Assembly: GCF_001659605.2 (NCBI RefSeq)
Contig: NC_035164.2
Coordinates: 5,435,379 to 5,499,378, forward strand
From: Manihot esculenta
Lineage: Eukaryota; Streptophyta; Magnoliopsida; Malpighiales; Euphorbiaceae
Length of the DNA: 64,000 nucleotides
Reading direction: 5' to 3'
A program made the translations under genes and the position numbers. Numbering within the stretch: the first letter of the stretch is position 1; the number at the start of each line of letters is the position of its first letter. Below are positions 46,937 through 54,800 of this stretch, piece by piece. Below the pieces are notes generated by a model. It did no database searches and was not told the DNA's origin. It worked only from the letters and a program-made list of their open reading frames with translations.

Positions 46937-46973
46937 TTAAATTTCTCTGCCAAAAATCCAGCTAAATGGAACC
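46937..46973 (-). pseudogene. Detached C-terminal end of the stearoyl-ACP desaturase gene
   Basis: Reading the minus strand from 46969 to 46937 gives PFSWIFGREI followed by TAA, the conserved C-terminal signature of plant acyl-ACP desaturases (PFSWIF(D/G)R). The four bases before it (GGTT) are the same as the last four bases of the gene body at 51876-51879, and the joined codons are in frame. The plus-strand sequence immediately to the right is copia RT. This piece was separated from the gene body by the inversion. Confidence 0.9.
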
Positions 46974-48388
46974 GAGGGTGTATTAGAACGGTTGAAAGCT
47001 CGTTTAGTTGCTAAGGGTTTCCATCAACTTGACGGTGTCGATTACACTGAAACTTTTTCACCCGTTATAAAACCTGGTACCATCCGTTTAGTTTTAACTG
47101 TTGCTTTAGTTCGGGGTTGGCCTATTCGTCAACTTGACGTTAAAAATGCTTTTCTGCATGGTTTCATTTCTAAGAATATTTATATGGAACAACCTCCTGG
47201 AATGATTGATTCTGCGCATCCCTCTTATGTTTGTAAGCTTCAGCATGCATTGTATGGATTAAAACAGGCACCGTGTGCCTGGTTTGATCGATTAAGTGTT
47301 TTTTTAATTAAATATGGTTTCTATTGCAGTCTTGCCGATCCTTCTCTTTTCATTTTTCACTCATCGATAGGAATTTTGGTTTAATTTATGTTGATGATAT
47401 GCTCCTCACATGCTCTTCCCCTCCTCTAGTTCAATCATTCTTGTAGGTCTTAAATTCTGAATTTTCTATGAAGGACCTCGGTCCGTTACATCATTTCTTG
47501 GGCATTCAGATTCACACTACACCCACTGGGCTCCATTTATCACAGACTCATTATGCTCATTCTATTCTGAAGCGTGCTCAAATGTTAGATTGTCGACCTA
47601 TGCCTATGCCTTCGGTACAAAACACAGTTTCCACTCCAGATGACACAACTGTTGATCCTCGCTATTTCCGGGGCCTTGTTGGTTCTTTGCAGTATCTTAC
47701 ACTGACCCGGCCTGATCTTTCTTTTAGTGTGAATTACGTTTCTCAGTTTATGCACACACCTGACGTCTCCCATTTAAAATTTGTTCGGCGGATTTTACGT
47801 TATTTAAAAGGCACTATTCACTACGACCTATCTCTAACCGCTAACACTTCACTTGTTCTTAGTGCTTTTTCTGATGCAAATTGGGCTGGTTGTCCAACTA
47901 CTCGGAGATCCACCACCGGCTACTGTACTTTTCTAGGTTCAAATATACTTTCGTGGTGTGCCAAGAAACAGAATACAGTGGCTCGTTCCAGCACCGAGGC
48001 GGAGTATTGCGCTATGGCTCATGCTGCCGCTGAGCTCACATGGTTGGGCTATTTATTGGCTGATTTACGAGTTCCCATCCATCATCCTCCGGTTCTTCAT
48101 GGTGACAATTTAAGTGCCTTGTATCTTACTGTTAATCCTGTACTACATGCTCGTAGCAAACACATTGCTCTGGACTATCATTATATAAGAGAATGCGTTG
48201 CTCAAGGGGTTTTAACTACTAAGCATATTCCATCGTCATTACAACTGGCTGACATTTTTACAAAGCCCATGACAAAGGCTCGCCTGGCTCAATTTCGTCA
48301 CAAACTTTGTCTACAGCCCCGACAAAGTTTGAGGGGGGATAATGACTTAAGGGGTTATAAGGATGCAAATATTCCTCTGGAGTTATAA
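46974..48388 (+). pseudogene. 3' half of a Ty1/copia pol: reverse transcriptase and RNase H
   Basis: It opens inside RT at ERLKARLVAKGFHQ, then shows TFSPVIKP, QLDVKNAFLHG, LYGLKQAP and a YVDDM catalytic box. A frameshift near 47380 and a stop near 47446 precede the MKDLGPLHHFLGI motif. The RNase H part (47468-48388) has SDANWAGC, RSSTEAEY and KHIALDYHYIRE. It lacks the first part of RT and everything upstream; those are found inverted at 51880-54900. Natural stop near 48388. Confidence 0.92.
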
Positions 48389-48421
48389 GGCTGGATGCCA
48401 TGTGCTAGAGCTGTGGAGAGA

Positions 48422-50742: not shown

Positions 50743-51879
50743 ATGATTCTAAATCTCCACCCATTAGCCTTCTCAACCCAAAATGCTAAGTCCTGCAAAA
50801 TCTGGATGGCCACTACTGCTGCAAGAGAGAAGGTGCATGTTCAAGTCACTCATTCTCTGCCACCTCAAAAGATTGAGATTTTCAAATCCTTGGAGGGTTG
50901 GGCTGAGAAGAACTTGTTGAACCTTCTAAAGCCTGTTGAGAAATGTTGGCAGCCGCAGGATTTTCTGCCGGAACCTGACTCTGAAGGCTTCTACGATCAG
51001 ATTAAGGAGCTAAGGGAAAGAACTCAGGAACTTTCTGATGAATATTTTGTTGTTTTAGTTGGAGATATGATCACAGAAGAAGCAGTCCCAACATACCCAT
51101 CAATACTTAACTCCCTGGATGGAATTCAAGATAAGACTGGTGCATCTCTCTCTCCTTGGGCAATTTGGACTCGGGCATGGACTGCTGAAGAGAATAGACA
51201 TGGAGATCTTCTCAACAAGTATCTTTATCTCTCTGGACGTGTAGACATGAGAAAAATCCTGTAGTGTTCTCGTAAGTGGATCATTTCCAAATAAAACATT
51301 CTTAACTTGTATTTATGTTCTCTGATTGATGAGAAGACAATTCAGTATCTCATAGGCTGTGGAATGGATTCTAAATTTGAGAGCAACCCATACTTTGGAT
51401 TCATTTACACTTCGTTCCAGGAGAGAGCTACATTTATCTCCCATGGAAACACAGCAAAACTAGCTAAAGAACTGGGAGATATTAAACTGGCACAGATTTG
51501 TGGAACCATAGCTGCAGATGAGAAACGCCATGAAACTGCATATGTTAAGATTGTAGAGAAGCTATTTGAGATCGATCCAGACACTACTATCTTGGCATTT
51601 GCTAACATGATGAGGAAAAAAGTATCAATGCCAGCTGAGTTGATGTACGATGGCGAGGACTACAACCTTTTCAACCACTACTCAGCTGTTGCTCAGCGTC
51701 TTGGAGTCTACACTGCTAAAGATTATGCTGATATTTTGGAATTCCTTGTGAGAAGATGGAAAGTTGACAAGCTGACAGATCTTTCTGGGGAGGGACGTAG
51801 AGCTCAAGATTTTGTCTGTGGATTAGCTCCAAGGTTTAGAAAGTTGGTGGACAGAGCTCAAGAAAGGGCAAAGAGGGTT
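50743..51879 (+). pseudogene. SAD: Plastid stearoyl-acyl-ACP desaturase, C-terminally truncated by rearrangement
   Basis: The soluble plastid diiron enzyme introduces the delta-9 double bond into stearoyl-ACP, using ferredoxin and O2. The start MILNLHPLAFSTQNAKSCKIWMAT resembles a short transit peptide; the mature region starts near VHVQVTHSLPPQKIEIFKSL. The diiron ligands are visible: GDMITEEA, EENRHG (E150, H153) and DEKRHE. Exon 1 covers 50743-51258 (through VDMRKI) and exon 2 begins at 51331 (EKTIQYLIG). The 72 bp between them must be removed to keep frame, but their edges are not GT-AG, a possible defect. The body stops at RAKRV because TAA 51880-51882 comes from copia sequence. The last ten codons lie at 46937-46969. 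It may be a pseudogene or a truncated but expressed form. Confidence 0.9.
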
Positions 51880-54800
51880 TAACAATTCCTGACTTCGACC
51901 GAGTAATCATAGTATGTGAAGAAGGTAAATTCAAAGCATGTTCATCAAACATAGTATCATCAAGAGAAGCAGAATTACCTGGTGCAGTTAATGATAATTT
52001 TTCAAATTGAGAAACGAGAGACTCACTTACTGAACAGTCCAATGAATGTGTCTTTGTGGGCTGCTCTGGAAGGTCATTGTCCAATGAATGTGTCTCTGTG
52101 GGCTGCTCTGGAAGGTCATTCGAGACAAACAATTGCTGGTCTGGTATTGTTGAACATTGTTGCACCTGGTCTGCAATCCGAAGCTCCTCTGGACCTTGAT
52201 AGGAACTTTGTGCAGGAGCAGACGAATCTGCCACCACCACCACTTGGTTTAAAACTGACGAACTAGTCTCCGGAACATCCGTTGGCACTGGAACAGTAAC
52301 ATGTGACAGAACTGGGGACTGAACAGCAGTGAAATCAGCTGCTGTTTGCTGCAGAACTGAGGATGTAGATGAGGGCTGCAACACCACCGCAGAAGGCACA
52401 ACTGCGGCAGGCTGTTGGACCTGTGTGGCTTCACCTTCAGACGGCAGAATACTTGTGTTATGAGCATGAGAAGAGTCTGGCGAGGTAGCAATCTCAGAAG
52501 GCACACTCCCCTGTAAAGAAGGAAAAACAGTCTCATTTTGATTACTTTCATCAAAGTCGGTACATAAACTAGAAGAAGCAGGCAACCACGAATTCATAAC
52601 TTGAAGAGCAAAAGATGGATCAGCAGAAGTAGATTTGAAAGGAAAAACAGCCTCATCAAAAGACACATGACGACTTATAATAAATTTCTTAGTTCTAGGA
52701 TTAAAACATTTATACCCTTTGTGTTTCTCACTATAACCAACAAAAACACATAAGCAAGACTTTGGATCAAACTTATGTGCCTTAGAGTCCCAAATGTACG
52801 GAAAACATTTGGAACCAAAGACACGCAACGAACTGTAATCAAAATGAAAACCATGAAGCATATAAAAAGGAGTCTCATTTCCTAAAACAGTAGTAGGTAA
52901 TCTATTTAAAAGAAAGACAGCTGTTTGAAATGCTTCAACCCACATATATAAAGGTACATGACTATGGTACATCATAGTTAATCCTAATTCACGAATTACT
53001 CTATGTCGCCGTTCAACGGCACCTATTTGCTCAGGAGTATATGAACAAGAAATGTGATGCTTAATACCATGTGTGAGAAAAATGAGAAGACAAAGCATTA
53101 TTAACGAACTCACCTCCTCCATCTGAATGAAAAACTTTAATTTGTTTTCCGTATTGACGCAATATAAATTGTTCAAATGCCAAGTAAGTAGCAAAGAAAT
53201 TAGATTTCCGTTTTAGAGGAATAATCCAGGTATATTTTGAGAAATCATCAACAAAACAAGCATAGAACTTAAACTTAGCAAAAGAAATAACAGGCGCTGG
53301 TCCCCACAAATCGCAATGAATTTTATCAAAAACAGAAGAACTAGTATGTTCAGAAGCACTAAAAGGCATTTTACTTAATTTGCCTAACTGACAGCTATCA
53401 CACAAAAACTTAGAACACAAAGAACCTGTTACATTAACTAGATTTTTATTGAATAAAACAGAAATAGCCAAAGCTTGTGGGTGTCCTAATCTCTGATGCC
53501 AAAGCTCAGCAGTACCAGCCTTAAACCGATTCGAGAAGTAGGCCTCAGGAATTCCAGATAATATATACAGATTACGCCTCCTTGGCCCTTTCAGAAGTAC
53601 CTGCCTTGTTTCCCGATCCTTAACACAAACAGAAATATTAGAGAACTCACAGTTTACTGGATACTCATCAGTTAGTTGACTAATTGACAACAGGTTTTGT
53701 TTTAAATCAGGTACAGACAACACATTAGAAAGAGGCAGATTATACTTTTGTTTCAAAAAAGATGTACCAATACCATCAATTGGCAAGAACGCACCATTTT
53801 CGATTGTGATAGAATCAGACCCAAGATAACTACTAATATTTTTTAACAAATGTTTGTTACCTGTCATGTGATTGGACGCACCTGAATCAGCTACCCAGTC
53901 GGCATCGTGAACTCCATTGTCGAGTGTGAGAGCTGCAAGAGCTTGTGGAGGGCTTTCACGTTGTCCTTTAGAAACCCACCAGCAAATTTTAGCAATATGT
54001 CCTTCTCTGCCACAGTATTGACAAATTTCATCCCTATAAAGTTCCTGTTTAGCCGGTGTCATTCGCCTCTGGCCTGGTGGTGGTGGACGGCGTTGGGCAG
54101 AATACCCCCCCTTTGTTCTGATTCTGACCTCGGGTCTGCTGGGCTTGAAATCCTCGTCCTTGCGAATCGAAACTGGAGCGTCGATCTGAGCTGGGATTTG
54201 TGTGTTTCTGTTGATTCCCATAGAAAGCTACATGTGACGCGATCTGTTCCAGCGAAGTATTGGTCTGACTTATGAACCAATTCTGCCGTTGATCATGATT
54301 TTTCAATTGTGACACTAACTCATTATAGTTAGGTCGTGGTGGCTTGAGCATAGTAGTGGTGAAGGTCTCGTATTGTGGACCTAAGCTAGTGAGAAGACAT
54401 AAGACTTTCTCACCATCGGGCACTTTTTTACCAATTGCAGTCAAATTGTCGCAAATCTCTTTAAACAAGCGTAAGTGATCTGTTATAGAGTTGTTGTCGT
54501 CTTTTCGAAAATACGTTAACTGTTGTCGAAGGGTAAACTCTCTCTTTTGTGAGTCTTGAGCATAGGCTTCTTTCAAAGCGCTCCACACATCTCTCACAGT
54601 TTCTAATCCGATGACAAGTCCCAGAGATTCTTCACTGAGAGTCCCGTAGATCCACCCTCGAAGCAATCGATCGGACTTTTGCCAAGTTTTAAAAGCATCT
54701 GACTGTTGTGGTTGATAATTTTCTGGAACTGGATTTGGAGAAGGTTCGAACTTCTGATCTTCTGGAAAATCCCTCACAAGGTGATCGGATAATTCCTGAC

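What the first reader, a model, noticed from the sequence alone, without database searches (positions are those of the whole stretch)
46937..51882. A single ~4.9-kb inversion cuts both the desaturase gene and a copia element, and all four broken ends are still present
Seen directly: the desaturase body ends at 51879 (RAKRV) and its last ten codons (PFSWIFGREI, stop) lie on the minus strand at 46969-46937. The copia integrase half (51880-54900, minus) ends at its SGIVKP motif exactly where the desaturase begins. The copia RT/RNase H half starts exactly where the desaturase tail ends and points the other way. Both junctions share GGTT/AACC, a 4-bp microhomology. Reversing 46974-51879 rejoins the desaturase in frame and puts both copia halves and both LTRs on the minus strand. 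From family knowledge, roughly 60-70 residues of the RT N-terminal side are missing, so a small deletion accompanied the break. The copia insertion predates the inversion; its LTR pair differs at four of 238 positions, so the event should be recent.
Basis: partly seen in the sequence, partly recalled or inferred. Interest (0 to 1): 0.92.

Follow-up and report, generated by a model that had tools for sequence, protein, structure and literature searches.

The report
Small inversion splitting desaturase and copia
In the cassava reference genome a 4.9-kb piece of chromosome 4 appears to have been flipped end to end, cutting a fatty-acid desaturase gene copy and a nearby dead mobile element in two; it is a clear fossil of an ordinary DNA break-and-rejoin accident in a gene copy that carries other damage too.

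Summary
The window is cassava chromosome 4. One inversion joins the two halves of a stearoyl-ACP-desaturase-like gene to the two halves of a Ty1/copia element, and all four broken ends are present. A tandem paralogue 64 kb away (L002) and 14 copia copies (96-99% alike) give the unbroken sequences and correct four details. (1) The inverted segment is about 46982-51874, not 46974-51879; the gene tail is 14 codons (TPSVPFSWIFGREI), not 10. (2) The shared GGTT/AACC is coincidence: one is copia sequence, the other gene sequence; the junctions are blunt to about 2 bp. (3) 221-222 bp of copia were lost; the gene lost at most a few bases (inferred). (4) The LTR is 321 bp with TA...CT ends; the 5' LTR lacks its outer 82 bp, so no target-site duplication can be read, and the LTR pair is not clearly closer than LTRs of other copies. 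The gene also carries a 72-bp filler with an in-frame stop, matching a dispersed repeat. Best reading: two-break inversion by end joining in a decaying tandem copy, perhaps within 1-2 Myr (inferred). Ordinary biology, unusually legible; assembly error is unlikely but untested against reads.

The parts
50743..51874 (+). Body of a stearoyl-ACP-desaturase-like gene; the reading frame now runs on into copia and stops at 51882 (RAKRV-stop)
   Evidence: PF03405 matches; NCBI MANES_04G050900v8 (P0001) equals this stretch letter for letter with an intron at 51241-51333; L002 paralogue 95-98%
51258..51330 (+). Insertion (73 nt where L002 has 1) with in-frame TAG at 51262; matches the inside of a dispersed repeat, 100% at G000:C4:15893860-15893932
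46937..46981 (-). Severed C-terminal end of the desaturase, TPSVPFSWIFGREI-stop
46887..46936 (-). Start of the desaturase 3' UTR, aligned to L002 and to none of the six other paralogue loci held
46981..46983 (.). Inversion junction B: gene tail to 46981, copia from 46983; 46982 A is either copia (2 of 14 copies have A) or added
51874..51875 (.). Inversion junction A: gene to 51874, copia from 51875 (0-2 bp ambiguity)
46982..51874 (.). Inverted segment, about 4.89 kb
46983..48339 (+). Copia 3' half: RT without 221-222 bp of upstream coding sequence, RNase H region, purine-rich tract at 48328-48339; frame broken near a YVDD motif (read by eye)
48340..48660 (+). Complete 3' LTR, 321 bp, TAATGA...TTGCT
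48661..50742 (+). 2.1-kb stretch between copia and desaturase, carried along in the inversion
51875..54929 (-). Copia 5' half: primer-binding site TGGTATCAGAGC, gag, integrase region to SGIVKP; frame broken more than once
54930..55168 (-). 5' LTR lacking its outer 82 bp, hence no readable target-site duplication

Best explanation
A copia element of a cassava family with 321-bp TA...CT LTRs inserted about 2.1 kb upstream of a tandem desaturase copy, in the same orientation. Later two double-strand breaks occurred on one chromosome, one near the end of the desaturase coding sequence and one between integrase and RT of the copia. The 4.89-kb piece between them was rejoined backwards by end joining with little or no homology: 221-222 bp of copia were lost, while the gene lost at most a few bases. 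Shown: the complementary halves, the native sequences on both sides, the size of the copia loss, the absence of repeats at the breakpoints. Inferred: the break-and-rejoin mechanism, the gene loss (no native allele of this copy was seen), that both copia halves come from one insertion, and the timing (after insertion, perhaps within the last 1-2 Myr).
For: Native gene end from L002, contiguous body-tail-3' UTR. Native copia from 14 copies: 222-223 nt between AAACC and the RT side in 14 of 14, absent in the window. The lost piece, taken from L013, has no match in the window at E 1e-3. Copia and gene break at the same two joints. No repeat beyond chance length at the breakpoints. Of 7 other desaturase loci held, L002 alone aligns to the tail through the UTR, and L002 is also the closest to the body. 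No N in the window. The NCBI protein P0001, from a contig of slightly different length (35,938,211 against 35,936,526 bases), ends at the same RAKRV, though this is not independent read evidence.
Against: No uninverted allele was found: the 8 desaturase places listed for the 86-contig assembly hold no second allele. The tail is more diverged from L002 (83% over 100 columns) than the adjacent body (98% over 543); older flanks beside a gene-converted body would explain this, but so would a tail from a third copy, and a genome-wide DNA search with the tail did not complete. The LTR pair is not uniquely similar, and no target-site duplication can be read. Native copia has AAACCC near both ends of the lost stretch, so most of the loss (about 213 bp) could have been an earlier internal deletion.
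Confidence: 0.87

Rival explanations
1. Assembly or chimeric-read error: the inverted order does not exist in the plant.
For: No reads or second accession could be examined. Cassava genomes are described as more repetitive than the human one and hard to assemble (passage of PMC8952263), and the window holds many long repeats.
Against: No N and no repeat at the joins. Misassembled inversions are expected at inverted repeats (general knowledge), here the LTRs, not in mid-exon with 221-222 bp lost. The gene model from a slightly different chromosome length has the same end.
Confidence: 0.06
2. Two unrelated events: the tail is a remnant of another desaturase copy in opposite orientation, and the two copia halves are different insertions.
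For: Tail divergence from L002 is higher than that of the body; LTRs of this family are nearly equidistant; no target-site duplication links the halves.
Against: It needs the body to end and the tail to begin at adjoining codons, and the copia halves to stop at the two ends of one gap, by coincidence, at the same two joints.
Confidence: 0.05
3. Staggered-break or microhomology-driven inversion marked by the shared GGTT.
For: GGTT/AACC is present at both junctions.
Against: At junction A it is copia (AAACCC, 13 of 14 copies); at junction B it is within the gene tail (TCG GTT), with CACCCTC before it still gene. So it is neither a duplication nor an overlap.
Confidence: 0.03
4. Replication-based template switching rather than two breaks (a variant of the best explanation, differing in mechanism only).
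For: A separate 72-bp insertion matching a distant repeat suggests copying-type repair at this locus.
Against: At the two inversion junctions no duplication, no microhomology of more than 2 bp, and no added sequence beyond possibly one base at 46982.
Confidence: 0.1

Closest known systems
Small two-break inversions by non-homologous end joining in plants
   Same: Near-blunt junctions with a deletion at one of them. A review says two breaks made on one chromosome are usually repaired by classical NHEJ, which can give inversions, as occurs spontaneously in the wild (PMC10893937, passages seen)
   Different: Nothing in mechanism; here both ends of both broken units are still readable
Small inversions between cassava genomes
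   Same: HiFi alignments between TME204 and AM560 reveal inversions from 100 bp to a few kb that gene synteny misses (PMC8952263, passages seen)
   Different: The passages say nothing on this locus; the synteny inversions they list are on other chromosomes, none on IV
Ty1/copia LTR retrotransposons with non-TG...CA ends
   Same: Domain order gag-integrase-RT, primer-binding site, purine-rich tract, flanking duplications of 5 bp in 3 of 4 other copies (6 bp in the fourth); TACT is in the LTR_retriever end-motif list (PMC8220671, passage seen)
   Different: This copy is split, truncated and frame-broken
Filler (templated) insertions at plant break repair (recalled)
   Same: 72 bp matching the inside of a dispersed repeat, no target duplication seen
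   Different: The only other 100% match listed is 10.4 Mb away on the same chromosome

Membership tests
Two-break end-joining inversion | Reversing one segment restores the order of the interrupted units on both sides | tested here: met
   Gene order against L002 and copia order against 14 copies, each compared apart
Two-break end-joining inversion | No long inverted repeats at the breakpoints | tested here: met
   Longest shared word 8 (inverted) or 9 (direct) within 150 bp; 200 random inverted pairs: mean 8.9, max 14
Two-break end-joining inversion | Uninverted ancestral allele exists | not testable with these tools
   Only one cassava assembly was held; no second allele among 8 desaturase places listed
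Staggered-break inversion | Same sequence duplicated, inverted, at both junctions | tested here: not met
   The GGTT pair has two different origins
Inversion by recombination of inverted repeats | Breakpoints lie in inverted repeats | tested here: not met
   Inverted LTRs are at 48340-48660 and 54930-55168, not at the breakpoints
Ty1/copia LTR retrotransposon | gag, integrase before RT, LTRs, primer-binding site, purine-rich tract | tested here: met
   PF14223, PF22936, PF13976, PF25597, PF07727 above their cut-offs, integrase core PF00665 below its own; LTRs and tracts
Ty1/copia LTR retrotransposon | 5-bp target-site duplication at this copy | tested here: inconclusive
   Outer end of the 5' LTR lost; clear 5-bp duplication in 3 of 4 other copies with both ends, the fourth reads as 6 bp
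Plant acyl-ACP desaturase | PF03405 domain and conserved metal-ligand motifs | tested here: met
   which residues bind metal is recalled
Plant acyl-ACP desaturase | Intact open coding sequence | tested here: not met
   In-frame TAG at 51262 in the 72-bp insertion, C-terminus severed

The most novel reading that the evidence does not exclude
The inversion, the 221-222-bp copia loss, the 72-bp filler matching a repeat 10.4 Mb away and the truncated LTR end are products of one local shattering-and-repair episode within about 8 kb, rather than separate accidents.
Probability: 0.12. Interest if true: 0.45.

Novelty: new member of a known kind. Interest (0 to 1): 0.25.

Why it matters
It is a clean record of how a spontaneous plant inversion was joined, with native sequence at hand for both broken units, so loss and microhomology at each end can be counted. 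It also shows that the reference gene model MANES_04G050900v8 describes a damaged copy, which should not be taken for a working desaturase in cassava lipid studies without testing.

Tried and rejected
Rejected: the GGTT/AACC microhomology (two different origins); LTR-mediated inversion (breakpoints elsewhere); 46974-46980 as copia sequence (the 14 copies examined differ; L002 matches). A 239-bp LTR, and my early reading that the target duplication was simply mutated, were dropped once other copies showed a 321-bp LTR. The LTR pair as proof of one insertion was dropped as weak. The 72-bp insertion was first taken for an intron; L002 has none there and the sequence is a dispersed repeat.

Led nowhere: a genome-wide DNA search with the tail and one with the LTR did not complete, so other copies of the tail outside the 7 paralogue loci are not excluded. 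Literature: searches (open-access library only; listings and abstract starts, plus passages of five papers) showed no description of this inversion; no paper was read whole.
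Full report
Where it is. The best protein hit of the desaturase is MANES_04G050900v8 of Manihot esculenta, and the held genome places the window at G000:C4:5435379-5499378, 640 Mb in 86 contigs. Eight desaturase places are listed there, the window's own included. 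The nearest relative, L002 (C4:5421843), lies about 64 kb to the left of the window gene, has one uninterrupted frame, and encodes P0003 exactly.

The gene junctions. L002 reads GCAAAG CAA GCA CCC TCT ATT CGA TTT AGC TGG and on through the 3' UTR. The window body follows it to GCAAAG and one more A (51874), then reads GGGTTTAAC. The minus strand from 46981 reads ACACCCTCGGTTCCATTTAGCTGG, that is TPSVPFSWIFGREI-stop, and the alignment to L002 continues about 50 nt into the UTR. So the severed tail is 14 codons, and GAGGGTG at 46974-46980 is gene sequence.

The copia junctions. A DNA search with 46981-47384 listed 40 places (40 of 300 candidates scored): the window itself, 14 at 96-99% (L010-L023) and 25 at 74-82%. 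In those 14 the sequence just before the first copia base kept in the window (TTAGAAC; CTAGAAC in L012) is GATGGCAC(G/A), except GATAGCACG in L015, unlike GAGGGTGTA in the window. In 14 of 14, 222-223 nt lie between the integrase-end AAACC and that point. The window keeps AAACCC on one side and TTAGAAC on the other, so 221-222 bp are gone. Hence the GGTT at 51876-51879 is copia and the AACC at 46970-46973 is gene, and they are no microhomology. The joins are blunt to about 2 bp. A complication: native copia has AAACCC shortly before the right-hand end as well, so an internal deletion of about 213 bp could have come first.

The element. Other copies show a 321-bp LTR with TA...CT ends. Of nine 5' regions fetched, four held an LTR and five gave no match and were left out. 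The four copies with both ends show flanking duplications: TGATT, CTATT and TCGTC at 5 bp, and AAATAT at 6 bp. TACT is among the LTR end motifs in LTR_retriever (PMC8220671, passage). In the window the 3' LTR is complete and the 5' LTR lacks its outer 82 bp, which have no second match in the window. The shared 239 bp differ at 4 sites; the LTR pairs of the four other copies differ at 9 of 321, 6 of 320, 20 of 318, and 8 of 322 with 2 gap openings. At a recalled rate of 1.3e-8 per site per year, 4 of 239 is about 0.65 Myr, an upper bound for the inversion only if both LTRs are from one insertion. Against my reading: the window 3' LTR is closer to the LTR of another copy (L037, 3 differences) than to its partner (4, equal to L011, L012, L013); from the 5' LTR the partner is closest, 4 against 5 or more. 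The family is star-like and the LTRs do not prove one insertion.

The gene is damaged elsewhere. At 51258-51330 it carries 73 nt where L002 has one (net 72 bp), with an in-frame TAG at 51262. This stretch matches 40 places listed (the window included; 40 of 122 candidates scored), 100% at C4:15893860. Seven of these (L041, L043-L048) share about 0.6-1.6 kb around it when compared with L043; the window shares only the 71 bp. That is the mark of a templated filler insertion (inference). The NCBI model P0001 skips it with an intron at 51241-51333, leaving out also VDMRKIE; this reading reproduces P0001 exactly. P0001 also lacks the SYRPAKE stretch present in P0003-P0007. Coding divergence from L002 is dS 0.104, dN 0.031 in the first 420 bp and dS 0.054, dN 0.007 in the next 543 bp. 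Against five relatives, amino-acid differences beyond alignment column 60 count 8 on this copy, 7 on L002 and 1 unclear; two of the 8 (column 63 beside the N-terminal gap, column 388 at the junction) are not ordinary substitutions. There is no sign of a long unconstrained period, which fits recent loss.

How it most likely arose. No N and no repeat beyond chance length lies at the joins. Two breaks and end joining explain the two junctions. Assembly error, two unrelated events, template switching and staggered breaks are treated as rivals. Small inversions of this size are reported between cassava genomes as a class (PMC8952263, passages).

Verdict. The finding is real in the assembly and mostly right in its reading, wrong in its microhomology and exact breakpoints. 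It is a new instance of a common kind of event.

Noticed in passing
51258-51330: 72-bp filler-like insertion in the desaturase, identical to part of a dispersed repeat 10.4 Mb away; the public gene model skips it as part of an intron.
   Followed up: yes
54930-55168: 5' LTR of the copia lacks its outer 82 bp: a further break or deletion at 55168/55169.
   Followed up: partly
50825-50840: In-frame loss of the SYRPAKE stretch at the N-terminal side of the desaturase compared with P0003-P0007.
   Followed up: partly
17085-19174 and 31227-33326; 23348-25554 and 27837-30042: Two pairs of 2.1-2.2-kb direct repeats, 98.8% and 99.5% identical, the second pair inside the first: they look like nested young LTR elements.
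   Followed up: no
48879-49250 and 55237-55998: AT-rich repeats on both sides of the copia, in inverted orientation now, direct before the inversion; on the right side repeated at a spacing of about 370-400 bp.
   Followed up: no
P0123 (Hevea) and P0152 (Pistacia): Two copia gene models in different plants both jump from SGI(V/H)KPNPN to ADPSLF, skipping the first part of RT; possibly a shared splice-like signal or a prediction habit.
   Followed up: no
L002 against 50743-51874: Body is 98% identical to the paralogue over 543 bp, the first part 95%, flanks 81-83% or unalignable: suggests gene conversion between tandem copies.
   Followed up: partly
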